A DNA stretch of 64,000 nucleotides, from positions 1,119,914 through 1,183,913 of the forward strand of contig BCJJ01000014.1 in NCBI GenBank assembly GCA_039545355.1. Direction: 5' to 3'. Below the pieces are notes generated by a model. The model was not told where the DNA came from. It did no database searches and was given only the letters and a program-made list of their open reading frames with translations. This document shows, piece after piece, positions 5,008 through 41,642 of this stretch. Each line of letters begins with the position of its first letter. Position 1 is the stretch's first letter. This DNA comes from Trichosporon coremiiforme (Eukaryota; Basidiomycota; Tremellomycetes; Trichosporonales; Trichosporonaceae). A program made the position numbers and the translations under genes.

Positions 5008-6420
5008 ATGACTGCGACCACCAACGGCAACGGCCCCAACCACCACCTCGCCCCCGGCCAGTGAGTACTACGACGTGCTGGGAGCTGTCGTCGTCGCCGC
5101 GCTCCCTGCAGACAGCACCGCGGAGTCGGAGTACCCGAGCGGAGCTACATTCCGACTCGTGGCTCCTGCCAGCTCGACGCACGTTTTTTCGCAGGACAGA
5201 CCCGCTGACGAGCAGCTTCCTCTTCACCTCCGAGTCGGTCGGTGAGGGCCACCCCGACAAGATCTGTGACCAGGTCTCGGACGCCATCCTCGATGCCTGT
5301 CTTGCTGAGGTGAGTCGATGATTATGGGTCGATTGGCCCGTGCGCCGGAGTTGATGACGCCGAAGCTAACTTTCAGGACCCCAACTCCAAGGTCGCTTGT
5401 GAGACCGCCGCCAAGACCGGTATGATCATGGTCTTCGGTGAGATCACCACCAAGGCCAAGATCGACTACCAGAAGGTCATCCGTGACACCATCCAGAAGA
5501 TCGGCTACGACGACTCTGAGAAGGGCTTCGACTACAAGACCTGCAACGTTCTTGTCGCCATTGAGCAGCAGTCGCCCGACATTGCCCAGGGTCTTGACCA
5601 CGGTGACCTTGAGAACCACGGTGCCGGTGACCAGGGTATCATGTTCGGTTACGCTACCGACGAGACCCCCGAGTACATGCCCCTCACCATCATGCTTGCC
5701 CACAAGCTGAACAAGGCCATGGCCGACGCCCGTCGTGACGGCTCCATGGGCTGGCTCCGCCCCGACTCCAAGACCCAGGTCACCGTCGAGTACAAGAAGG
5801 ACGACAACGGACACCTCCACCCCCTCCGTGTCGACACCATCGTTATCTCGACCCAGCACGCTGAGGAGATCACCACTGAGGACCTCCGCCAGCAGATCGA
5901 GGAGAAGATTATCAAGAAGGTCATCCCCAAGGACCTCCTTGACGAGAACGTCGTCCTCCACATTCAGCCCTCTGGCCGCTTCGTCATCGGTGGTCCCCAG
6001 GGTGACGCCGGTCTTACTGGCCGTAAGATCATCGTCGACACCTACGGTGGTTGGGGTGCCCACGGTGGTGGTGCCTTCTCGGGCAAGGACTTCTCCAAGG
6101 TCGACCGTTCGGCTGCCTACACTGCCCGTTGGATCGCCAAGTCGCTTGTCGCCGCTGGCCTCGCCAAGCGCTGTCTCGTCCAGCTCTCGTACGCCATTGG
6201 TGTTGCTGAGCCCCTCTCCATCTTCGTCGACACCTACGGCACCGGCAAGAAGACCGACCTCGAGCTTGTCGACATCATCCGCAACAACTGGGACCTCCGC
6301 CCCGGTGTTATTGTCAAGGAGCTCGACCTCCAGAAGCCCATCTACCGCCAGACCGCCGCTTACGGCCACTTCGGCAACCCCGACTACAACTGGGAGAAGC
6401 CCAAGCAGCTCAAGCTCTAA
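5008..6420 (+). CDS. SAM2: S-adenosylmethionine synthetase
   Basis: Makes S-adenosylmethionine from methionine and ATP in the cytosol. Exons 5008..5060, 5195..5309 and 5377..6420 give 403 residues, the normal family length. Recognisable blocks: [21 protein letters not shown] (ATP/Met site), [12 protein letters not shown] and [15 protein letters not shown], the glycine-rich signature. The start is in an A-rich context (ACAAAAATG). A short Asn/His-rich N-terminus precedes the catalytic core. Codon use is strongly biased to C-ending codons, a sign of high expression. A long antisense open frame over this gene is a by-product of that bias. Confidence 0.97.
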
Positions 6421-7577
6421 GCTCGCAGCTGTTTGTGTCCCCAAACGTTATAATCTAGTAGTTTAGGCATCTGAACCCAAGCCCCACACCTCACATCTTC
6501 ACCTCCGACCATCGGGACGCCCTTGAGCACAAGGGCCCCCGCGTGAGTTCCACCTCGCGCGCTCTCCTACCCCTCCTCATATCACCATACCCACGCATAT
6601 ATCATTCCCTCGGACAGTTACCCCACAACACACCTTCACCCTGGCACCCAGCCCAGTGGTGTATACCCCCGGACGATCCCCGCGCTTTATAGACTTAAGT
6701 GGCGCGGGCCCCGGTTCATATCACGGTACTTCATATGAAAGGCTTCAACCGCCACGGTTATTGGTTGCAGGTTGCACTGTTCTAACTCTCTACTAACTGG
6801 AGGCTGATGTGACGATAGGATTGGCTCGAAGCGCCCGGGGATGCGCAAGAAGGAGGGAAGGGAGGACATGTGTGCAAGAAGTTACTGTGAGCTGGAAGAA
6901 GCCTGCGATCGTCAAGTTCTCGGGGGTCACGGTGGCGGCTCTGTCGAATTGAGATGCCGAGAAAGGTCGCTGTGTCAGACACGTCACGAGCAACATCTGC
7001 TGCGGTGCCAGATCGACGCCTTGAGGCCGTTCATGATCGTCGCAGACGCGTCATAGAAGTGCACAGGTGTCTCACCGATCTTCGTATGGAACCAAACACG
7101 CCTGCACACGTCAACCGACCGGTACACCTGCACACTCGGCTCTATCGGTCTTTCTCACTTCCTTGTTCACACTCAGCGCCTCGACTGACTCTGTACACTC
7201 TTCACATACTCCCAACTCTCGTAGTGGCCCACCCACACCCCGCACCGAGCTACGCCCTCTCAGTGTCGTGTACGTCGCGTGCACTCGCACCGTCGCGCCC
7301 TCCCGCAAGTTGCCATGTCGGCGATACCTACTCCCAAGGCCAAGGGAAACGCCAGCTGACAGTTGGACTCTGGGTACCGCCCATGGCTTATGACACTGTT
7401 TCGTCGTCCTTCTTCACACCTCACTTCATCGTTGTTCACTTGTGAACTTTCGCCCGCCTCCTGCACCTCTTCGACTTCTGCCAGCTTCTGCCCACCTCTG
7501 ATGACTCTATCACTCGTCGTGGCAATCGTTCTGCCGTCGGGGACGGGCTACGTCGAGTGGCGAGAGGTGTGCAAGGC
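6421..7577. other. Intergenic, SAM synthetase 3' side to micro-exon locus
   Basis: About 1.15 kb. The ATG at 7501 begins a frame with a hydrophobic start (MTLSLVVAIVLPSGTGY) running into the GTGAGT donor at 7584, but in that phase it meets a stop soon after the first splice, so I did not use it. ATG at 7315 ends after 14 codons. No other supported feature. Confidence 0.45.
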
Positions 7578-10316
7578 ATGGACGTGAGTCTTCCCCTCCC
7601 CCCCTTCCGTAACCGGTTGGCAGCTGTTGGACGCGGTGTTGTGGCGAGATATAAGGAGGAACGGAGGGGCGAAAGTCACGGGACCTGTGTGGCACACTCC
7701 CAACACAGCTGGCGTTCGCCCAGAGAGCTGACAGGCAGAACTCACATAAACCCGAAGCCGGCCAACTCTCCTCCTGCACTGCATGCTGTACCACGGCATC
7801 GTATCCGAGCCCACTTGACACTCGAGCAAAGCTACGCATCCGCTATGGGCATTGTGTAAATGGGGACAGAGCAAGCTGAGTCCATCGACCTGAGGCTCTT
7901 CGGGGGAGCTTACGTGGTGTCGAAAAGCTAACTATCCGGCCGAGAGTGAGCTTCACGGCTTTGTGTCCCAGCTGACCTCCAGAGTGGAGGTGAGCTTGCG
8001 AAACAGGTGTGGCAAGCTGAGGACAGATGGTGAGCTATCCAACTGATCAGGAGCTGATATCAGGACGCGGAGAGTGAGCTCTGAAGCTCTCTGGCTAGCT
8101 GACAGCAGTTGGGAGGGTGAGTTTGTTCGTGTTCCATGGCTGGGTTGGAGTGGACTTAGTATGCTCCGGGAAGTCGTCTGAGCTGACACTTGCAGCCATG
8201 GGTATAAGCTCATGATGTCAAGGACAGCTGATTGTCAGTCAGAGGGTGAGCTGGAGCATGCAGTTTCCACAGCTGACTTAAGTTGCAGGGTGAGCTTTAG
8301 GACAGATAAGTTGAGCTGACGGCAGTCGGTGGAGTATGGGCTCTGCAACCACTGCCCCCAAGCTGACTGCAGACCTTGAGCGGGGTGAGCTTTGACGTCC
8401 GTGCGTACAGCTGAATCGTCAGTCTTGCAGTGAGCTGAAAGGGCGCTACGTTCAAGCTAACCACAGGGATACAGTCACGCCACGTTGCCACCTCGGTAGC
8501 GGCAGTTGGTGAGCTGGTCCTTTGTTCTTAAGCTCATGCCAGGTTGGAGGGCGGGCAAGCTCAGCCTTTCCTCGAGTATGCAGCTGACGGCCAGTAATTG
8601 GGTACGCTAGAGTAGGGCTTCGCGTTGTAGCTGACAACAGGGGAGGAAGATACGCTGCCCAGAGTGAGTAGCTGATGACAGAGCGGAGAGCTTCGAAGGT
8701 TAGGCAGACAAGCTGATTCCAGACTGTGGACTTGTGAGCTGCCACGGAGTTGTCAAAATTAGCTGATCGCCAACCGTTGGGTATCCTGTGGGGGTTTGAC
8801 TTCAGAGCTGACAACAGGCATGAAGTTGCGCCATGGAGTCGTCTGTTAGCTGTCAGCAGACAGATCAGACCGGGGCAGGTGAGCTGTCAGATCCCGCAAG
8901 GATGAGCTGACACCAGGCTGTGGCATGGGTTATTAGCTTATATTCCCCGTACTTCTAGCTCATTACCAGCTGTAGGGTAAGCTGGGGAGTGCTTTCACGG
9001 CAGCTGACCGCAGAAGGTGAAGGTGTACTATGAGGCCGTTTGGGTCAGCTGACGACAGGTGGTGAGCTACCCTGATGTCGTGGAGCTTACGCCAGGCTGT
9101 AGGACTGTAAGCTGACAGAGAGTTGTACTTAGCTGATCGCCGGACAGCATGGTGAGCTATACCGCCGCGACAGATACATGTGTATCTGTCAGCAGACATG
9201 AGCTAGAAAGTCGCCAGTGACTGACTCCAGGTGGGATGGGTGAGCTGGCTAACCGTGCCCATAGCTAACCGCCAGTCTTTGGCTGAACTGGAACACGCTG
9301 CCTACCAGCTGATCTCGATGTGTATGAGGCATCCTTTGGAGACATCGACAGGCAGAAGGCAGACCGTAAGCTACTCCTGTTTTTGCCGAGCTGACGCCAG
9401 ATCTGTGGATGGCCGGCCGTCGTACCGTACTGAGCTGAATTGGCAGCCCTTGAGTCAGCTGTGAACCGGCCGCATCTTGACTGATGACAGCACAGGTGAT
9501 GAAGGGACATTTCTGAGTCGTCATGCGTAGCCGACAGCAGACAGGAGGAGGTGAGCTAGCTGTGTCACGGCAAGCTCGTTCCAGACTGCGAGATAGGTGA
9601 GCTGAAGGACCCCGCCTGTAGCTCATTACCAGTCGAGGGTAAGCTCCCCGTCGGAGGTTCGAGCTGGCTGCAAAGGGTGAGTTTCGCTCAACGGAGCTAC
9701 GCTGATGTCAGGTAGTGGCACGGGTAAGCTGCCGGCTCGTTTTGATTAGCTGACCTCCAGCCGTTAGGTATGCTGAACGAACGGCCACAGCTGATTGCAA
9801 GCAGTGAGCTATCACGACGAGCTAAGAGCCGATGATAGGCTATGGGAAGAGTCAGCTTCTTCGCCGCGGCCACCCAAGCTGATGTCAGTGAGCCACGAGG
9901 TTCGAAGTGGCGGGGAGTTGTCGATGACAGGAAGCTGAAAGTCCGCTGGCTCGATTCAGCGTAAAGCTGAAGGCAGATGGTTAGCTGGATGGAATCTCCC
10001 TTGAGCTTACGACTAGCCTGTGTTAGAATGGGCGACCTTGCACCGGCCCCAGAAGCTGAGATCAGGTTCAGCTGAGAGGTACCGCTTGCAAATGTGTAGG
10101 TGCTGACAGCTTGCCCCCCTAGGCTGTAAGCTGCCCAATACTCCGTTGCAGCTGACATCAGGCGAAGAGAGTGAGCTTGCTTCGCAAAGTTTACCCCAGC
10201 TGACAGCAGAGGCCCGTGAGCTATCGCTCCAGAACATCAGGAGGGCCGTGAGCTGTTCCGCCTCTGCGTCTGATAGCTCACTTCAGCTCGTTTCAAATGC
10301 GGAGGTTCACACCTAA
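7578..10316 (+). CDS. Candidate micro-exon gene: about 50 tiny introns, protein of unknown function
   Basis: The tract consists of intron-like modules, mostly 34-42 nt, running donor GTGAGCT (variants GTAAGCT, GTATGCT, GTACGCT, GCAAGCT), then AGCTGAC, then NNCAG. Exon-sized gaps of mostly 2-23 nt lie between. My model starts at ATG 7578: 7578..7583, 7624..7686, 7724..7800, 7832..7853, 7895..7945, then micro-exons such as 7983..7989, 8027..8029, 8064..8073, 8109..8116, 8151..8158, 8196..8201, 8239..8245, 8283..8289, 8326..8333, 8373..8384, 8423..8429, 8467..8508, 8543..8554, 8595..8601, on to 10241..10247 and a last exon 10287..10316 ending in TAA. The joined frame is open for about 248 codons, including stretches such as WSEVAGRWNLERVLQDT and LAELEHAAYQLISMCM. 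About ten junctions had alternatives and I chose those keeping the frame open, so the exact protein is a hypothesis. The alternation of splice signals itself is plain. No family recognised; a non-coding or satellite origin remains possible. Confidence 0.5.
7946..10286 (+). repeat. Degenerate tandem array of intron-exon units
   Basis: Seen directly: GTGAGCT or a close variant recurs every 40-60 bases, always followed by AGCTGAC(or AT)NNCAG before the next donor, over 2.3 kb. Some units are related beyond the splice sites. 8759..8787 and 9745..9773 share TTAGCTGA, CC, CCGTT and GGTAT blocks; several exons begin CTGTAGG or GCTGTGG (8917, 8970, 9096, 10123). In the 8759 copy the acceptor CCAG has become CCAA. 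The array therefore seems to have grown at least partly by duplication of whole intron-exon units, with later drift. Interior intron sequence is mostly dissimilar. Confidence 0.7.
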
Positions 10317-11055
10317 TATATGTTAGCCGCGCACTACCAGCGCATCCCACGAGTCAGTAAGACCTTCGCTCTGGTAGTAGCATGGGTTGGGGGACGATGC
10401 CTAAATTCGAGATCTGGGTGCAAGTCAGTTACGATAAGGAGTCAAATTGGCCGAGCTCGGCGAGTAGACTCGCGGCCTCTGCCTCATTTTTGAGTCCCTA
10501 CCATCGCTGCTATGCTTAGACAATTCTACGATAACCCAGCTGGAACCTCGCTGGAACCTCGCCAACATCGTAGCTGGGATCTCGGCCTACATCAATAGGG
10601 GTTGACACTCAGTTGTGACCTTGTTGCATTGAGACTCACCCTCGATTTGTCACCCAGCCCATCGCCGCACGTTGCAGTCTCTCATCTGTCGCGTAGACAT
10701 TCGATAGCTGACTCCAGGTCGGTCGCTGACCTTGCATGTTGTGTGCATGTCCCTCCGATGGGACTTATTCACTGGCCGTCGGCTAACATCACCGTCACAA
10801 GGCTGAAGCCGGCCAACACCACGTTCAACGCTCGCGTCGGCTTGAGCTTCATGAACGTGATGTTAGTTGACGACCAGTGATGCGGTATTCTGTTTTACGC
10901 TGCGTTCGCAAGGTCGCTTATACGCACCGTCAGCTCCTATGTAAGCTGTTGCTCGACGTCTTAGCTGACATCAAGGGCCTGCCAATGACGCCACCAGGAA
11001 CCTCTGTACTTCATTCATGTCATCGCTACTCGCTACTGCTGACTACTCGTCGCGC
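10317..11055. other. Intergenic, with one further intron-like module
   Basis: About 740 bp. A 35-nt GTAAGCT...TTAGCTGACATCAAG module at about 10939..10974 looks exactly like those of the upstream array, and an isolated AGCTGACTCCAG occurs near 10706..10717. A 92-codon plus frame at 10602..10880 has no recognisable similarity. CTGGAACCTCG is directly repeated near 10540..10561. No gene can be supported. Confidence 0.4.
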
Positions 11056-11694
11056 TTAGGGGAACGAGACCTGGCCCTTGAAGTCGGCCGAGAGGGAGTT
11101 GCCAGAGTCCTTCTTGGTCTGGAACTGGCCCTCGCCAGCGGTGCCCTGGAGCTGGCCGGAGCCAGACTGGGGGAACCATACCCACTCGGACTTGAACTGG
11201 CCGTCCTTGGCCTCACCGCGCTCACGGATCATGATGGCGCCCTCCTTGCCCTTGATCGTGCCCTCGAAGAGGATCTGGCCGTCTTGATTGTCAGTGGGTG
11301 GTCTCACATGTCGTCATCGTCCGTCAACCCTTTCGGCCATAGCTATGGGGGGCTGAGAGGCGAGAGGCAAGTAAACTACTCACCGTAGGCAAAGTGGTCG
11401 GTGCCGTCACGCTTCGGCTCGCCGCTGTCGTTCTTGTCGGGGATGTAGGTGATGACGTATGAGCCGCATCCCTTGCCCTTCATGTCGTCCGAGTTGAACT
11501 CGTAGTCGGCGCCAGCGGTGTCGTGGTTGACAGCGTGGGCGTGCTGCGAGGGGGTAACCTTCCAGGGCTTGGAGGTGAACTTGATAGCGACTGAAGTGTC
11601 AGCCCAGCTCTACTCGTGGCTAGGGCGGCGCCTTAGTCGTGTCCAAGACCGAGGCCGGGGACGGATGTGGGGGCCACTCACTGTTCTGGGACAT
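11056..11694 (-). CDS. Small DUF3224-like beta-barrel protein
   Basis: Three exons on the minus strand (11682..11694, 11384..11590, 11056..11282), 148 residues. The C-terminal half has the layout of DUF3224 proteins: a 'G-I-KG--GAI-IRE-GEAKDGQ' strand block followed by W-FPQSGSGQLQGTAGEG. That family is common in bacteria and in some fungi and has no settled function. No signal peptide or membrane segment. A TATAAA-like element lies about 60 bp upstream (11757..11762, minus). The last acceptor is AAG rather than CAG, chosen because it restores FAY-DGQILFEG. Family assignment is by pattern only. Confidence 0.7.
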
Positions 11695-13286
11695 TTCGGC
11701 TGAGCTTTCTTGGGTGGAAGTAAGGTGGAGAGGGCGGTCATGAGACCCAGGCGTGCATTTATATGGGAGCCTGCGAGCTCGCTGCCATCTCGTCATCGCA
11801 AAGCTCCAGCAGAGCTCCAGCAAAGCTCCAGCAAAGCTCCAGCAAAGCTCCGTCAGGCTCCTGCCAGCCGCTTGCCCGAGGCTATGACATCGTTGATCGT
11901 GCTGCACGTATCGCAGGAACCCGGCCCGGGTTTCCGCGAGGCTCGATGAGGCTCGGTCAGCTTCTGTGAGCCTGGCTGGGTGAGAGAGGTGCACATGGCG
12001 TGAGAGGGACGGAGCTCGGTGATGGGAACTGGTGATTGAGAATGGAAAGGCACCTACCCAGTCCATCGTGTTCCATGTCCTACGAGCGGCCACAGTCGGT
12101 CCAGGTCCACCTCGTTCCTGGCCTTCAATGTGCCACAACCGAAGAACATGCGTTTGGCTGCCTGCGAGGGCTGGCTCAGCTCGGTCTTGACTTCGGTCAA
12201 CATCAACACGTGAATGGACACCTCACGGCAGTCCGTTTCATGCTGCAAGCGATGCTGGCTGTGCAAGGCTCCCCCAGACCACACACATAGCCTGGCGGGG
12301 CTCGGTCATCTTTCACGGGCACCCCCCGTCCATCCGTTGCGCTTGCGATGAAGTGACGTATAGTGAGCAACACAGCGCTGCATATAACCCTACGCGCTTG
12401 CTTTCACTGGTTCGCGCTCGCTAAACCCTGCTCGAAGTCTATCGTTGCGCCGTAAGTGCCGAAGCGGTCCGCGATCAACCCGAATCGAGGCAATGTCCGA
12501 TTCAGTATTCGATCGGCGTTCTTCCATGGGCACTTCTCACTTCCACCGCTATGACAGCCTGCTCCTCCCTACTTACACCTGCTTCACGCGCAGCTCACGC
12601 TACGAGCTCACGTGCTTCGTGGCCAGAGAGTGTTGAGATCGAGATGGAAGACACTGACCTCCGAGGAGAGCTCCATGCGGAGCTGTTCCGAACCCACCAC
12701 CGGCCACAGCCTACGTGGGCCATCTCTTGCTCCGTCCGTCTCGAAGAGGTATGGCTACCTGAAACGGAACGTAGACACCCCACTTCCCACCCCAACGACA
12801 TCGACGTCACTGCAACCATTCCCTCGTTCCTGGCTCTATCTTTGACAGCATGTCTCGGCGCTGTGGGGAGCTGAACGCTTGTTGATCACTCATAGCAGAT
12901 GTACCGAAACGTCCGCGACATCGGTTGGAGTAAGACGCCGAAGCTCAACCTCGGACCTGGTCGGCAATCTATAGAACTGAACGTCACTTGTAGCCTCATC
13001 TCGAGTGCTCTAACAATGGACTTCCTGTTGCAGACAGCTTGAGGATGCACAACTTGGTGCGATTTCTGATGAGCCATTTCTGATGAGCCAAGGGTCGCTC
13101 CGTGCCGAGGTTGACCAGTGTCGGGGATGACCGACGTCACCCCCGCATTCCTCATGACCTCACCCCTCAGTCATTCGCGCCAGCCCACCTACTCCTTCAT
13201 CGTCTCTCCTGCTTCGATCACCTCTATCTTCGTCTGCCGTTTTCAGCACTCCTCAAAAGCATACTCACCCCTCGACGCCCGCCCCG
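11695..13286. other. Intergenic, DUF3224 promoter side to carboxypeptidase
   Basis: About 1.6 kb, the shared upstream region of two divergent genes. It contains the 11-bp repeat listed separately and a direct duplication of ATTTCTGATGAGCC near 13062..13090. Frames 12036..12290 and 12551..12874 are short, overlap others and show no similarity. No gene supported. Confidence 0.45.
11799..11851. repeat. 11-bp tandem repeat (AAGCTCCAGCA)
   Basis: Four to five head-to-tail copies of AAGCTCCAGCA, nearly perfect (one A-to-G change), about 100 bp upstream of the DUF3224-like start codon and next to its TATA-like element. Confidence 0.85.
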
Positions 13287-15250
13287 ATGTCATCTCTACC
13301 CCTGTTCAACCCCTCCGATCAAGGCGACACCATGTCGGAGAAACAACAGCAGCAGCCTCAGGAAGAAGCGCAGGACAAAACGCTGCGCCAGCCGTATGCC
13401 CTCGGCGTGCGGCCAGGACAGCGCGAACGCCGTTCCCGCTGGGTGCTCGTCGGCTTCGTGGTCCTCGCAATTCTCGCTACGATCCATCTCTCTTCGCCCA
13501 ACGGACTCACCGGCTGCCTGCACGCGCCGTTCCGCTCCCACTCCAAGTCCTCCCACTCCTCCCACGGTCACAGTCATCACCACAAGCACCACGGCCACGG
13601 ACTCAAGGCTAAAAACATTGGCGGCAAGAGTCCTTCTTGCCCCGCGCAACCCGATCCGATCCAGCCTGAGACGAAGGTCGACTGGACCGAGGAAAGGAAG
13701 AAACACAGCGCCGAGCTGCACGCCCAGGCCGTGCAGCACGCGACACAGAGTTATGACGATAACGGCGAGCCAGGGGAGGATGAGCGGTGGGAGCCGTTCC
13801 ACACTTTCTTGGAGTGGTGGAGGGGCGCGTTCCCTACGGCTGTGGAGAGGGCCAACATCGAGATGATCAACAGTGAGTTGACAGGGCTGAGCAGCCGACA
13901 GGCTGCGATGGCTGCATGGGCCGGAGGGCTATGGGGCCTGACCTCACTGCGCTCGCTATTGCTCGCTAACGCCCAGCCCTCGGCATCCTGGCCACGTTCG
14001 AAGGCAGCGAGCCCGACCTCAAGCCCCTGGTGCTCATGTCGCACTACGACGTGACGCCCGCGCCGGAGAACACATGGGACCGCTGGACCTACCCTCCCTT
14101 CAGCGGGCACAACGACGGGACCTACATCTGGGGCCGAGGTAGTGCGGACGACAAGTCCCTCTTCGTCGCCGAGTGGGAGGCAGTGACCTACCTCCTCGAG
14201 TCGGGGTGGACGCCCCGCCGGACGCTCATCCTCTCGCACGGCTTTGACGAGGAGGAGGTCCATGCCCGCAGGGGACAGGGCCACATCGCGCCTTTCCTTG
14301 AGGAGCGATACGGCAAGGACTCCCTCCTGATGGTGGTAGACGAGGGAAGTGGGCTGCAGGAGGACTTCTTCGGCGCCCCCTTCGCACTCCCCGCCATGGG
14401 CGAGAAGGGATACCTCGACGTGCGCATCAGTGTCGGCACCGACGGCGGACACAGCTCCATGCCGCCCAAACACACGGGTATCGGCATTCTGTCCGAGATC
14501 GTCGTCGCGCTCGAGAAGGCGCCCTTCCCCGTGAAGCTCACCGAGCGCTCGCCCTTCCTGACCACCCTCGCCTGTGGAGCCGCGTACGCGCCCAAGTTCC
14601 CGAAGGAATGGAAGAAACTCCTGAAGAAGGGGCCGAAGGGATGGGAGAAGCTCAGCAAGGGTCTCGCGGCCAAGGACAAGATGCACGCGGCGCTGCTGCA
14701 CACGACGCAAGCGGTTGATGTCTTCCACGGCGGGGCCAAGGTCAACTCGCTCCCCGAGCTCGCGGAGGTGGAGATCAACTACCGCATCGACTTTGACGAA
14801 AGCGTCGAGAGCACGCAGAAGCATATCGAGAAGATTGCCCGCAAGATTGCCAAGGAGCACGACCTCAAGCTTGACGCGTGGCCGCAGAACGCTACCACTG
14901 CCAGCGGTAAGGTTACGCTCAGCATGATTGGGAAGGCGCTCGAGCCTGCGCCCAACACGCCGGCGCACGGCGGGGCTTGGGAAACGTTTGCCGGTACTGT
15001 GCGTGCTGTCTTCCAGCCGCCCAAGGGTAAGGAGCTCATCGTCGCCCCCTTTGCCACGACGGGCAACACGGATTGCAAGATGTACTACAACCTCACGAAG
15101 AATGTGTATCGCTTCATGGGCCTTAGGATGGACGACATCTACGGCATCCACACCATCGACGAGCACTCCAGCCTCAAGGGACACCGCGACATCGTCGACT
15201 TCATGCACGCGCTGATCCAGAATGCGGACGCTTATGATGGCAAGGAGTAA
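13287..15250 (+). CDS. CPS1: M20 carboxypeptidase S (Gly-Xaa carboxypeptidase), membrane-anchored
   Basis: Vacuolar zinc metallopeptidase that releases amino acids from small peptides. Exons 13287..13872 and 13977..15250, about 620 residues. A single N-terminal membrane anchor (WVLVGFVVLAILATIHL) follows a Gln-rich cytosolic tail. Metal ligands and catalytic residues of M20 are visible: LMSHYDVTP, GRGSADDKS, the EEE of SHGFDEEE, the DEGSG block and the final GIHTIDEHSS. A luminal His/Ser/Lys-rich linker just after the anchor is unusual. Start choice: 13287 is the first in-frame ATG; 13332 has the better context (CACCATG) and may be the true start. Convergent with Pfa4, 86 bp between stops. 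Confidence 0.92.
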
Positions 15251-15336
15251 GGGGGTTAGGCTATTAGTACATCTGCGCTCTTGTATCTATCTAGAATGTG
15301 AATAGGAAATGAAAGATATGGACAGTTCGACACTCG

Positions 15337-17218
15337 CTATGCCTCGCCGTAGTCCGCCTCCGGGACATAGGTCCTGTACCGTCCCGGCTGCTCCCATGCC
15401 GGCCGCTCCCACACTGGCACCTCGTTGCTCCAGCCCTGCCGCCCGGGACGCACCTCCCATCCCTCGCTGCCTCGCCTAACACGCATGCTGCTCGCGTATG
15501 CCAACGGACGATCGTCCTCCTCATCCCAGTCCGAGTGGTACGGCTCGGGGCTGGACGAAGAGCTCGTGTCCTCGTCGTCGACGGCGAACCCGTTCTCGTC
15601 CAGCCGCGTGTCCCATGCCGGCACATAGCAGCTGTCGCGCGCGCGCTTCGCCATGCTGCTCGGCTTGAGGGAAGGATTCAGCCCGTCCCCATACACAAAT
15701 GGACGGTCTGGCATGGGCGCAGGTTGCTGGTAGTACTGCGGGTCGCGCGGGGGCCACGAGTACTGCGCCGAGGGCTCTGGATAGTCAGCTTGAGAACCTG
15801 GCGTCAATCGGTGCCATGGGGGGAGAAGGGGCAAAACTCACCTCTCACACCATCTCTTCTGCATTGTTCAGATGCGAACGTAGACGCGCCTGCGCCTGGC
15901 TGTGTCCTGATGACAGACCGACGTCCTTGCCGTCAGGCGGCGCAGCCTGGTCCGGCGCGACGGCGTACGCCCACTCCTGCGCAGACTCACCACCGGCATC
16001 GGGATTGACAGCGTAAGACAGCCCGTCGCCCTCCATCTCCTGCGGCCAGAGCCACAGAAGCGGGTTGCTGCCGAGCACCGACTTAATGTTGGCGATGCGC
16101 CCCAGGTTCTGACGTCAGCTCGCAGAGGACTAGTTAGCTACACACGTAAGGGTATGTGATCTCCTCGATCTTTCCGCGGCGGACAAGCGTCGCCACCTTG
16201 TCCTTCTCCCATCGCTCGACTGTCGTCGTGTTGCTCGAGATCAGGTACAGGTGGTACCAGCTGAATAGGCCGACGCAGATCCATACCGGAATACACGCCG
16301 TGAAGTTGAACACGAGGAAGATGATGTCCGAGGCAGTGGGCTCGTTCTGAATGTCAGCTAAAGCGAATTGCTGGGTGAGCTGCGGTACGCACAGAGACAT
16401 TGTCAATGATAGCCTTGACCTTGGCGACCATCATGACTAGGTGATACGTCGTCGCAAAGTCAACCCACCACAGGAAGCGGATGAAGTGGCCGTGGTTGTA
16501 GTAACCGACGCAGTTTGCGATCCATGGACAGTGGTCTGGGATTAGTTACCCACCAACGTGCCGGCAACAGAGCGAAGGATGCGCGCGAGTACATACGGTC
16601 AAGCTGTTGTTAGCTGCAATCCAACACGCCGAAGCTCACCTTCAGAACACAAGTCTTGCACTGACGGCAGTGGTGCGCGCGCGGCGGCTTGTAGTGGCCG
16701 CACATCTTGCAGAACCTCGGTGCCGAGTTACCGCGCTTGACCTCAATGTACTCGGAGCCCTGCATGTTGGGTCGCTACGTGTAAGCTCAGTGTGAACGCC
16801 TGGCTAGCTGGAGTGATATCGGTAACCTTCAAAGAGAAGCGTCACTACAGCGTGCAGGACGGCTAGCGTCGGTCCATTTACATAGGAAGGAGTGAAGGGT
16901 TGCGGCAAAAGATGACTCACGTATCCGAGGGGCACGCTCCCCGGCGGCGTTCTAACGCAGAGATAGTAGTTCCAGAACACCATGCCTACGAGCAGACTGT
17001 CATGTCAGCTAGTCACCCCGTATGCCTTAGCTCACTTGAAGGGAATGAGGAGCTTGAGCAGCTCAACGGAGACCACGCTCCCGTACCATGGCCAGATGAT
17101 AAAGATCTGGGACGAGTACGAGATGAACGCAATCAGGCAGACCGTGCCGGTGGCCCTGGGGTCAGCTGAGCAGAGGATACGAAGCTCACCAAGCGGTCTT
17201 GGACCAGTCCATGGTCAT
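15337..17218 (-). CDS. PFA4: DHHC palmitoyltransferase, Pfa4-like
   Basis: Endoplasmic-reticulum protein S-acyltransferase; in yeast Pfa4 palmitoylates chitin synthase Chs3. At least nine exons, first exon 17190..17218 ([10 protein letters not shown]), last stop at 15337. Two N-terminal helices ([25 protein letters not shown] region), the cysteine-rich domain [23 protein letters not shown], catalytic DHHCPW, then two more helices ([19 protein letters not shown]). A 7-nt micro-exon, 16597..16603, encodes the Leu-Asp of K-LD-HHCPW; without it the DHHC motif is lost. The C-terminal tail is long, acidic and Pro/Tyr-rich. Only the main exon junctions were worked out. Confidence 0.88.
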
Positions 17219-17507
17219 GGTGACGGATAGTCTTACGGCGACTCGAGACGGGTGAAGGAAGAAGGGAGGAGACGAGGAAGTGATCGATCGAAAGGACGGG
17301 TGGAGGCACGCGTGAATACGTAGGTGACTGGAACCCAGGGTCGTGTTGCGCGGCGGACTACGCCAGACAGTCCGCAAAACGCTGACCATCCGACGGAAAA
17401 GCGCACCCAGCTTGCCATGCAGGAATCACGGTCGCATCGCATCAACAGCACAGCAGCTAGCTAGAAGCACATATCTATCAGTCGCTCAGCTTTTGCATTA
17501 TGGCCCC

Positions 17508-18794
17508 TCAGTCAGGCTTCCTATCGCCCGGTACCAGGCTTTTCGACGTCTCGCGGACCTGGATGTTTTTCAACGCGACACAGATCTGGCTAACAAGAAA
17601 GAGGCACTATGACGACTTGCTCCGTCTCACCTTTCGCATCGGAGGCGCGGGAATGAATCCAAGCACGCCAAACATGAGAACGTACACGGCCGTCGCTGTC
17701 TGTCAGCGCGAACCTATCCTGCAAGCTCACCTCCACACATGGCCGCTAGCCGGCTCATCTCGAGCTTCTCCTCGAGTCCGAGAGCGGCGCGAATCGCGCT
17801 CCGGATCGGACCGCGCGGGTGCGAGTGCGAAGCGTGGCTGAGCGCGAACGCGAGCGCACTCCATCCGCTCAGGATCGTGACGAAGAGGAGCTGGACGTCA
17901 GTACTCGGCGATCGGTTTTCAGACGGCTTCGCAGATCGGGGTCGTTCCCATCCCCTCATCCCACGTTTCAGAGCGGTATGCGGCGTACTCCTGTGCTTGC
18001 CGCCGGCAGCACCGGCGCTATCACGCAACACGCCTTCAGATAGCTAGCTTTGGATGACGCGGCATAGCACAGCGACGGCTGGGAGTCTGGAGCGCAGGAC
18101 GTAGGACGTAAACAAAACCCCGATCCCCAACTTTTGGTCTAGGCACCGTTAACCGCGCCGCTGGCCGCTCGCCGCGCCGTGACGGAAGGGTGGGACGTGG
18201 GCCGTTAAATGTGCAACTCACAGGAACAATAACACGCAGACGGCGCGACTTCTGCCATTTGGGGTACTGCTCGTCAGCTATGATCTTCCCTAACACAGCT
18301 GCAGGCGTGGGCACTCTAGGCGAGGAATACTCACATTCGGGAGCGCGCACTGGTACCATGGCAGATAGACCACGAGGTAGAGGAAGAGCGAGACCGTGAT
18401 GAGCTGCAGGCCAACGGCGGCCGAGAACGCGGTACTGTCCTGTCAGCATTGTATCATTCGGCGAACGTTGTGCGTCCCAATCCCGGTCCCGGACGGCTCC
18501 GTGCGCCCAGTTCCTCATACCCGGGGGCGCCGGACAGAGTCTGGGAACGGAACGCTCGGCGAGCGCCCAACAGTCCTAAGAGGGAAATACTCACTGGCCC
18601 CATCCGCGGAGTGCGCGAACCTGCGCGGTGGCAGCGGGCAGGTCGAACCACCAGATACCCAGCAGGCCGGCGGCGACGTACTTGCCGTGCTTGACGAGCG
18701 CACCCGCAAAGCCGGCGGGACGGTCGATCTCGGCGAGCGCGCGCTCGCTGCTGCTTCCGCGTCGCTTGGCGGGGAGGGATCCGGCTGTGCTCAT
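17508..18794 (-). CDS. Multipass membrane protein of unknown function
   Basis: Six exons: 18595..18794, 18335..18434, 18222..18266, 17731..17890, 17631..17695 and 17508..17585, joining in frame to 215 residues. At least three hydrophobic segments are clear: AAVGLQLITVSLFLYLVVYL (near residue 75), LLFVTILSGWSALAFALS (near 118) and AVYVLMFGVLGFIPA (near 172); a weaker one precedes them. The N-terminus is Ser/Arg/Lys-rich and lacks a signal peptide. The second acceptor was picked between two adjacent AGs by frame. I do not recognise the family. Same strand as Pfa4 and the aldo-keto reductase. Confidence 0.75.
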
Positions 18795-41012: not shown

Positions 41013-41095
41013 GGGCGTCTAGCTCAGTTGGTAGAGCGCGTCATTAGCATTGTCTAGTATTGACGAGGTCTTTGGTTCGATTCCTAAGTCGTCCA
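41013..41095 (+). tRNA. tRNA-Ala (AGC) with intron
   Basis: GGGCGTC opens the acceptor stem and GTCGTCC-A closes it, including the G3:U70 pair that identifies alanine tRNA. D arm GCTCAGTTGGTAGAGC, anticodon stem CGTCA/TGACG, anticodon AGC, with about 10 extra nt after position 37. A T-run follows at 41103. Two stem positions are T-T mismatches (6/67 and 51/63), so the gene may be a weak or ageing copy. Confidence 0.8.
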
Positions 41096-41536: not shown

Positions 41537-41642
41537 TGACAAGAGTGGGATTCGAACCCACGCCCGAAGACTGCGAAGTTCTACTGCTCGAAGGAGCACA
41601 AGAACCTGAACACAGCGCCTTAGACCGCTCGGCCATCTTGCC
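41537..41642 (-). tRNA. tRNA-Leu (CAG) with intron
   Basis: On the minus strand GGCAAGA pairs with TCTTGTC (acceptor), GGCCGAGCGGTCTAAGGC is the typical leucine D arm, CTGTG/CGCAG the anticodon stem and TTCAGG the loop with anticodon CAG. The intron after position 37 forms its own hairpin (TGCTCC-TTCG-AGCAG). A long variable arm and a GTGGG-TTCGAAT-CCCAC T arm follow. Length 106. Confidence 0.9.

What the first reader, a model, noticed from the sequence alone, without database searches (positions are those of the whole stretch)
7578..10316. A fungal micro-exon gene: about 50 introns of ~37 nt separated by exons of a few bases
Seen: over 2.7 kb, intron-like modules (GTGAGCT or near variant, 15-25 varied bases, AGCTGAC, two or three bases, CAG) follow one another with gaps mostly of 2-23 nt. 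Joining the gaps gives a frame open from ATG 7578 to TAA 10314-10316, about 248 codons, and it ends just where the array ends. Caveat: at about ten junctions I selected the option that kept the frame open, so openness alone is not proof. Known parallels are the micro-exon genes of schistosomes and the bicycle genes of aphids, which encode secreted proteins; I know of no fungal case as extreme. Here the start is not signal-peptide-like. Three ordinary genes in the window carry 7, 12 and 14-nt exons, so the splicing machinery can do this.
Basis: partly seen in the sequence, partly recalled or inferred. Interest (0 to 1): 0.95.

Follow-up and report, generated by a model that had tools for sequence, protein, structure and literature searches.

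The report
Non-coding array of tiny introns
A fungal genome carries many stretches where dozens of miniature introns are packed head to tail with only a few letters between them, and they appear to be kept for being spliced rather than for making a protein.

Summary
The modules are real and have the form of this fungus's own introns. 34 are called between 7946 and 10286, all on one strand, with a median gap of 12 nt; dinucleotide shuffles average about one at most. The protein reading is not supported: with the called introns fixed, the exon letters carry no more codon signal than intergenic DNA, while held-out coding sequence planted in the same architecture gives z 7-21. If every long gap hides a further intron, power at the window itself is weak (planted z 1.9-5.0, observed 1.7), so that part leans on sister arrays. 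The array belongs to a genome-wide class: 24 segments with 556 called introns gave z at most 3.4. One array is ten tandem units of about 170 nt; across them splice signals stay 84-90% identical while intron interiors fall to 33% and exons to 47%. The window array shows similar old internal duplication, and the other subgenome's locus lacks the array. Best reading: a spliced non-coding transcript selected for splice signals. No transcript data could be examined; function is inferred.

The parts
6830..7583 (+). leader/putative promoter region, weakly alignable to the homeologous locus on C20
   Evidence: pairwise alignment; blastn gap
7584..7738 (+). first, long intron-like stretch GTGAGTC...AGCTGACAGGCAG; donor- and acceptor-like letters also align in the homeolog that lacks the array
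   Evidence: the model itself calls 7687-7738
7946..10286 (+). the intron array: 34 called minimal introns with micro-exons between them
7946..7982 (+). array intron
   Evidence: score 22.5
7990..8026 (+). array intron
   Evidence: 16.7
8030..8063 (+). array intron
   Evidence: 20.4
8074..8108 (+). array intron
   Evidence: 22.6
8159..8195 (+). array intron
   Evidence: 17.4
8246..8282 (+). array intron (AAG acceptor)
   Evidence: 19.3
8290..8325 (+). array intron
   Evidence: 22.7
8334..8372 (+). array intron, weak donor
   Evidence: 11.6
8385..8422 (+). array intron
   Evidence: 15.7
8430..8466 (+). array intron
   Evidence: 21.1
8509..8542 (+). array intron
   Evidence: 17.7
8555..8594 (+). 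array intron, GC donor
   Evidence: 14.4
8602..8640 (+). array intron
   Evidence: 15.1
8664..8722 (+). array intron (59 nt, contains an inner AGCTGATGACAG)
   Evidence: 15.4
8734..8773 (+). decayed module: good donor and branch point, CAG acceptor lost
   Evidence: direct reading of the sequence
8781..8817 (+). array intron
   Evidence: 13.3
8879..8916 (+). array intron
   Evidence: 22.6
8977..9013 (+). array intron
   Evidence: 21.9
9023..9058 (+). array intron
   Evidence: 14.6
9062..9095 (+). array intron
   Evidence: 20.1
9107..9147 (+). array intron
   Evidence: 13.5
9152..9206 (+). array intron, weak
   Evidence: 10.4
9240..9275 (+). array intron
   Evidence: 20.9
9366..9400 (+). array intron
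   Evidence: 21.8
9454..9490 (+). array intron, weak
   Evidence: 10.9
9551..9584 (+). decayed module: intact donor, branch-point A replaced by G
   Evidence: direct reading
9597..9632 (+). array intron
   Evidence: 17.7
9677..9711 (+). array intron
   Evidence: 18.2
9724..9760 (+). array intron
   Evidence: 21.6
9768..9801 (+). array intron (AAG acceptor)
   Evidence: 13.6
9804..9838 (+). array intron; preceded by a 2-nt exon
   Evidence: 12.7
9851..9888 (+). array intron
   Evidence: 14.8
9980..10016 (+). array intron
   Evidence: 13.6
10126..10161 (+). array intron
   Evidence: 21.9
10171..10209 (+). array intron
   Evidence: 22.4
10248..10286 (+). array intron, last of the dense array
   Evidence: 19.7
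10941..10975 (+). isolated intron-like module beyond the dense array
   Evidence: 18.2
5356..6420 (+). upstream gene, S-adenosylmethionine synthetase (context)
   Evidence: Pfam on 5422-6417; codon score
11056..11591 (-). downstream convergent coding exons (context)
   Evidence: codon score

Best explanation
The array is a non-coding transcription unit built from spliceosomal introns. A short intron-bearing unit was duplicated in tandem many times. The copies then drifted until introns and spacers hardly resemble each other, while selection kept the donor, branch point and acceptor. The likely mode of action is the act of splicing itself: a + strand RNA, probably started in 6830-7580, is spliced dozens of times as it is made and runs toward the 3' end of the convergent gene at 11056. 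Shown: intron form, one-strand orientation, no detectable coding signal, tandem similarity, splice signals retained beside strongly diverged sequence, absence from the homeolog. Inferred: that it is transcribed and spliced, that selection acts through splicing, and what the splicing is for.
For: Intron form equals the genome's own, far above shuffles. No coding signal. Class: the strict pattern intron-microexon(1-24 nt)-intron has 63 matches in the genome and 0 in the reversed control. Of 18 merged loci from the first 30 matches, 17 have at least 10 called introns and 15 of those 17 are non-coding by the test; the other 2 are a Rad51-family pair. Tandem origin: C5:732k is ten units of 130-181 nt, six with three called introns and four with two; in the window array 20 of 37 180-nt pieces exceed the 95% null and 14 exceed the null maximum, against 3 and 1 of 20, and 4 and 0 of 44, in two controls. 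Constraint: across C5 units donor 0.87, branch point 0.84, acceptor 0.90, interior 0.33, exon 0.47; in the C14:1058k/C20:125k orthologous stretch 0.88, 0.82, 0.76, 0.38, micro-exons 0.45. Orientation: the downstream gene is convergent at 6 of 6 independent loci where one is visible.
Against: No transcript was examined. The splice-site constraint is partly circular, since modules are recognised by these signals and the aligner favours them; one-sided annotation lessens this but does not remove it. Spacers are somewhat better conserved than intron interiors among tandem units (0.47 against 0.33 in C5; 0.69 against 0.57 in the window), so some exon constraint cannot be excluded. If the long gaps of the window array each hide a real intron, held-out coding sequence planted there scores only 1.9-5.0 with frame jumps (observed 1.7), so the window alone does not strongly exclude coding. 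Several window modules are decayed. C7:602k shows no self-similarity above the null maximum (0 of 63 pieces), so tandem origin is not shown for every array. The homeolog does without the array.
Confidence: 0.6

Rival explanations
1. A protein-coding micro-exon gene, perhaps fast-evolving like aphid bicycle genes.
For: Micro-exons down to 2 nt are called; a 9-nt exon-like word is identical in both Rad51-family homeologs, so micro-exons may occur in ordinary gene regions. With frame jumps and a simple shuffle the window scores z 3.2. If about 15 real introns are undetected, planted coding sequence in the window scores 4.7-7.8 under that shuffle and 1.9-5.0 under a dinucleotide null, close to the observed values.
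Against: Under the dinucleotide null the observed jump score is 1.7, just above intergenic letters in the same architecture (0.6-1.4) and far below coding letters with complete introns (7.7-21.0). Strict z is 0.7 with 200 shuffles. In C12:443k and C5:732k even the hidden-intron control (4.6-10.7 and 4.7-13.2) exceeds the observed 1.2 and 2.4. Spacer lengths in C5 units vary by non-multiples of three. The homeolog lacks the array.
Confidence: 0.08
2. A dying copy of a former coding gene: the homeolog keeps an ATG followed by a P-loop-like peptide, and both copies are pseudogenes.
For: C20 homeolog reads MPALIVLDGFPGAGKRNAVPEVVRL then stop at the aligned ATG; several window modules are decayed.
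Against: A P-loop scan of the other fetched array loci gave only isolated matches unlike it, though those loci need not include their starts. Arrays elsewhere are equally non-coding. Old tandem units keep splice signals long after interiors diverge, which a pseudogene would not.
Confidence: 0.1
3. The array feeds RNA interference: many, partly poor introns stall spliceosomes and make the RNA a template for small RNAs, as described for the SCANR complex of Cryptococcus.
For: The genome has RdRP (16 matched stretches) and Piwi (7 matched stretches) sequence above the Pfam cut-offs. A mixture of strong and decayed introns is what such a template would offer. SCANR passage read in PMC5851062.
Against: Many called introns match the consensus well rather than poorly. 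No small-RNA data. DNA search finds no near-identical copies of this array elsewhere, unlike an active transposon.
Confidence: 0.12
4. Mutational sink: introns are inserted or duplicated everywhere, and non-coding transcripts simply tolerate them; no function.
For: Presence/absence between subgenomes; rapid turnover between homeologous arrays; spacers little constrained.
Against: Without selection the motifs should be lost once interiors reach 33% identity; they are kept. No recent intron copies found elsewhere by DNA search, though that search skips common words.
Confidence: 0.1
5. Not introns at all: a satellite of protein-binding sites or small hairpins, since GTGAGCT and AGCTGAC are nearly complementary.
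For: Five of 8 folded modules have the donor/branch-point stem in both the energy minimum and the centroid.
Against: Folding is not better than shuffles in most (z -2.3 to 1.0; 2 of 8 below -2). The form equals intron seeds outside the array, including the short distance to CAG and length 34-40.
Confidence: 0.03

Closest known systems
Spliced miscRNAs / lncRNAs of Cryptococcus neoformans (PMC3990503, passages)
   Same: Non-coding, spliced, in an intron-rich basidiomycete yeast; exons as small as 1 bp are reported there.
   Different: 1,434 introns are reported in miscRNAs, with 765 miscRNAs containing spliced introns, i.e. about two each; here up to 41 called introns lie in 3 kb, with tandem duplication.
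Aphid bicycle and megacycle genes (PMC9168663, passages)
   Same: Many micro-exons, fast sequence change, gene structure outlasting sequence similarity.
   Different: They encode proteins, with internal exons almost all in phase 2; here no coding signal and no frame constraint was found.
Schistosome micro-exon genes (recalled, no paper read)
   Same: Strings of very short exons.
   Different: Those encode secreted proteins with symmetric exons (recalled); not so here.
Introners / introner-like elements (PMC4457414, PMC9860276; search listing and abstract start)
   Same: Multiplication of intron sequences.
   Different: Introners are similar copies spread over many genes; here copies are local, tandem, include spacers, and interiors are strongly diverged; no dispersed copies found.
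Mammalian lincRNA genes with conserved exon-intron structure (PMC5041003, listing and abstract start)
   Same: Exon-intron structure studied as a conserved feature of non-coding RNA genes (title).
   Different: Ordinary exon sizes and no tandem intron arrays (recalled).
Microexon switch in Trichoderma Xlr2 (PMC11121469, listing and abstract start)
   Same: A fungal microexon.
   Different: One regulated exon in a protein gene.

Membership tests
Micro-exon protein gene (bicycle/MEG type) | Joined micro-exons form an open, codon-biased frame | tested here: not met
   weak power for the window alone if many introns are undetected
Micro-exon protein gene (bicycle/MEG type) | Exon phase symmetry / lengths preserving frame | tested here: not met
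   exon lengths mod 3 over 24 segments: 163, 195, 174 for remainders 0, 1, 2; C5 units
Micro-exon protein gene (bicycle/MEG type) | Signal peptide | not tested
   no coding frame to test
Spliced long non-coding RNA | No coding capacity | tested here: met
   with the caveat above
Spliced long non-coding RNA | Canonical introns on one strand | tested here: met
Spliced long non-coding RNA | Transcribed and spliced RNA exists | not testable with these tools
   no transcript data available
Introner-like elements | Near-identical intron copies dispersed in many genes | tested here: not met
   DNA search of window 7200-11060 finds only itself and a 52-bp flank match; the search skips very common words
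Tandem repeat / satellite | Tandem homologous units | tested here: met
   C5 array; window array (old, overlapping duplications); C7:602k not above null maximum; Tandem Repeats Finder reports nothing in the window array
SCANR-type siRNA source | RNAi machinery present | tested here: met
   RdRP and Piwi family matches only; SCANR subunits not searched
SCANR-type siRNA source | Small RNAs from the locus | not testable with these tools
   no small-RNA data

The most novel reading that the evidence does not exclude
A class of RNA genes, 'intron satellites', whose selected product is splicing itself: tandemly amplified minimal introns with free spacers, which load or occupy spliceosomes during transcription, for example to tune a convergent neighbour, buffer the splicing machinery or mark the RNA for small-RNA production.
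Probability: 0.35. Interest if true: 0.92.

Novelty: new variant of a known kind. Interest (0 to 1): 0.8.

Why it matters
If transcripts confirm it, this is a natural case where selection holds dozens of consecutive splice sites while the sequence between them drifts freely. It would make two questions directly testable: what splicing is worth to a cell apart from the message it makes, and how introns multiply. It also gives splicing biochemists a natural limit case of intron definition, with many 2-12 nt exons in a row, and warns gene finders that an open micro-exon frame can be assembled by choosing junctions.

Tried and rejected
Protein gene: not supported by the coding tests. The first stop-counting test already gave nothing; a codon-usage model, planted positives, looser penalties, frame jumps, a dinucleotide null and held-out positives followed. 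Against me: the planted genes, the S-adenosylmethionine synthetase control and the window 14720-18380 control come from regions used to train the codon table, so those z values are optimistic; the Rad51-family pair and the planted sequences do not. With frame jumps and a simple shuffle three arrays scored z 3.2-4.2; under the dinucleotide null they gave 1.1-2.4. C9:908k reached 3.4 and 1.4 (strict) under the dinucleotide null. Hidden-intron controls are weak for the window. A P-loop family as common ancestor of the arrays: the regex scan found that start only in the C20 homeolog. Nucleotide alignment of C12:443k with its C6 homeolog: mostly unalignable. Homeolog search for C7:602k found only about 160 bp on C15. 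Hairpin reading: no consistent excess stability. Rfam: only two tRNAs in the window. Identity values that required both copies to be annotated are inflated by construction; I use the one-sided values. Literature: searches listed no paper I recognised as describing such arrays; I saw only the top rows of each list, and the library lacks most subscription journals.

Full report
What was checked. The window lies in a 42.0 Mb, 134-contig genome. For a neighbouring M20 peptidase the two best hits are unnamed (93% and 70% identity) and the best named relatives are Vanrija albida (65%) and other Tremellomycetes, including Cutaneotrichosporon at 61-62%. A second copy of the region exists on contig C20, aligned blocks 76-83% identical, so the genome seems to hold two diverged subgenomes. 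Four hybrid genomes averaging 40.5 Mb are reported in Trichosporonaceae (PMC7026411, passages; see also PMC12820176, passages). I infer a Trichosporonales hybrid; the species is not established.

The modules are introns by form. Intron seeds outside the array have donor GTGAGCT, branch point AGCTGAC, most often 2-3 nt to CAG and length mode 34-40 (112 seed matches to a pattern that fixes the core letters). A model built from 109 such seeds introns in window 7401-11060 at rising penalties, against 6, 2, 0 and 0 on the other strand and shuffle means of 1.1, 0.45, 0.15 and 0. At penalty 8, 34 introns lie between 7946 and 10286. Over 7681-10290 there are 35 introns with median gap 12 nt; 18 of 34 gaps are 12 nt or less. 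At that penalty the - strand gives 7 calls, so weak single calls should not be trusted alone.

Coding tests. I scored, jointly, intron choice and codon usage, and compared with shuffled exon letters. Four coding controls gave z 8.5-15.3; two of them (window genes) were in the codon training set, the Rad51-family pair (11.2, 11.8) was not. 22 array segments gave -0.8 to 3.4, the window array 0.7, and two more gave 1.2 and 1.1. Planting training-set coding sequence into the exon positions of four arrays gave 12.1-32.1; random sense codons gave stop-only z of 3.1-7.3, where the real arrays gave -1.2 to 0.9. Under a dinucleotide-preserving null five arrays gave 0.4-2.1 with frame jumps and -0.3 to 1.0 without; intergenic letters in the window architecture gave 0.6-1.4 and -0.6 to 1.9, coding letters 12.3-21.0 and 13.8-21.3. 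Held-out coding sequence planted in three arrays gave 7.4-20.8 with jumps and 8.7-19.8 without.

The limit of these tests. If every gap of 38 nt or more hides an undetected intron, planted held-out coding sequence scores, with frame jumps, 1.9-5.0 in the window (observed 1.7), 4.6-10.7 in C12:443k (observed 1.2) and 4.7-13.2 in C5:732k (observed 2.4). An earlier version with training-set genes and a simple shuffle gave 4.7-7.8, 7.3-16.7 and 10.3-17.3 against observed 3.2, 3.6 and 4.2. So sister arrays test as non-coding even then, while for the window alone the exclusion is modest and leans on its belonging to the class.

The class. A strict pattern for a 1-24 nt exon between two canonical introns matches 63 times in the genome, and 0 times when read backwards. 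Loci were returned for the first 30 matches; they merge into 18 loci, 17 with at least 10 called introns. Two of the 17 are homeologous Rad51-family genes (Pfam Rad51, E 3.8e-69 on one of them) with ordinary coding signal; 15 are non-coding by the test. With the further loci fetched, 24 array segments hold 556 called introns; 96 of 532 exons are 12 nt or less and 217 are 25 nt or less. Two of the 24 segments are the two parts of one homeolog apparently split by an inversion. The remaining matches were not all visited, and some segments have median exons of 50-84 nt, so the class grades into ordinary-looking spliced non-coding loci.

Origin by tandem duplication. The array at C5:732k is ten units of 130-181 nt, six with three called introns and four with two; the first intron of all ten units has the same 8-nt branch-point-to-acceptor stretch. 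The window array has many overlapping internal similarities at offsets near 375, 676, 727, 992 and 1032. Pieces above the 95% level and above the maximum of a null that keeps the splice motifs: window 20 and 14 of 37; C5:732k 20 and 17 of 22; C12:443k 11 and 2 of 45; C14:1058k 16 and 5 of 53; C1:2036k 20 and 10 of 81; C9:34k 21 and 10 of 45; C7:146k 10 and 2 of 46; C7:602k 8 and 0 of 63; controls 3 and 1 of 20 and 4 and 0 of 44.

What selection keeps. Using the annotation of one copy only, identity across C5 units is 0.87 donor, 0.84 branch point, 0.90 acceptor, 0.33 intron interior, 0.47 exon. In the C14:1058k/C20:125k orthologous stretch it is 0.88, 0.82, 0.76, 0.38 and, for micro-exons, 0.45; in window self-alignments 0.83, 0.87, 0.90, 0.57 and 0.69, the last two inflated by choosing the best local alignments. 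Interiors this diverged beside intact signals argue for purifying selection on splicing, with the caution that modules are recognised by those signals. Exons exceed interiors somewhat, which leaves room for exon constraint.

Surroundings. In the window the array lies between the S-adenosylmethionine synthetase gene (+, Pfam) and a convergent coding region (-, from 11056). At all 6 independent loci with a visible downstream gene (window, C14/C20, C12/C6, C5/C17, C29, C31) that gene is convergent; genes were called by codon score, not homology, except where named. The upstream gene is co-oriented at the window, C14/C20, C12/C6, C1, C7 and C31, but not at C17 and C29. In the C20 homeolog the interval is about 1.1 kb instead of 4.2 kb and the model calls no intron in it; by eye one donor-like and one acceptor-like signal align with window 7584 and 7738.

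How it may work. I commit to a non-coding transcript maintained for being spliced (0.60 for that description). Within it, the purpose is open: co-transcriptional spliceosome loading that affects the convergent neighbour, spliceosome buffering, or small-RNA production. Each single intron would add little, which fits the mixture of intact and decayed modules, but that is inference. RdRP and Piwi sequence exists, so the RNA-interference version is possible.

Against known things. Cryptococcus has spliced miscRNAs and 1-bp exons (PMC3990503, passages), but about two introns per spliced miscRNA on average. Bicycle genes (PMC9168663, passages) share architecture but code. Introners (listing) are dispersed similar copies. 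I therefore rate this a new variant of a known kind, spliced non-coding RNA, with an unusual tandem-intron structure; the bolder class claim is in the novel case.

Noticed in passing
window 1-21582 versus C20:50001-80000 (L013-L015): The window has a collinear second copy, aligned blocks 76-83% identical: a hybrid-like genome that offers homeolog comparison for many loci.
   Followed up: yes
L014 (C20 homeolog of window about 7315): An ATG followed by MPALIVLDGFPGAGKRNAVPEVVRL and a stop, P-loop-like; the aligned window ATG at 7315 lacks the motif. Possibly the remnant of a kinase-like gene start.
   Followed up: partly
C12:443k versus C6:458k and C6:475k (L047, L052, L050, L053): The homeologous array appears cut in two by an inversion whose breakpoint lies within the array.
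   Followed up: partly
C2:508672-508721 and C4:1543759-1543806: Rad51-family homeologous loci share an identical 9-nt exon-like TATCTGAGT between canonical introns, a conserved micro-exon candidate in an ordinary gene region.
   Followed up: no
window 41013-41095 (+) and 41537-41642 (-): Two tRNA genes on opposite strands about 440 bp apart, the only Rfam matches in the window at gathering scores.
   Followed up: no
window 11798-11851: Tandem repeat of the 11-mer GCAAAGCTCCA, about 5 copies.
   Followed up: no
C5:732k array: Several spacers begin with TCCC or CCC directly after CAG and some share words such as GCATATG; a weak exon-sequence constraint is possible.
   Followed up: no
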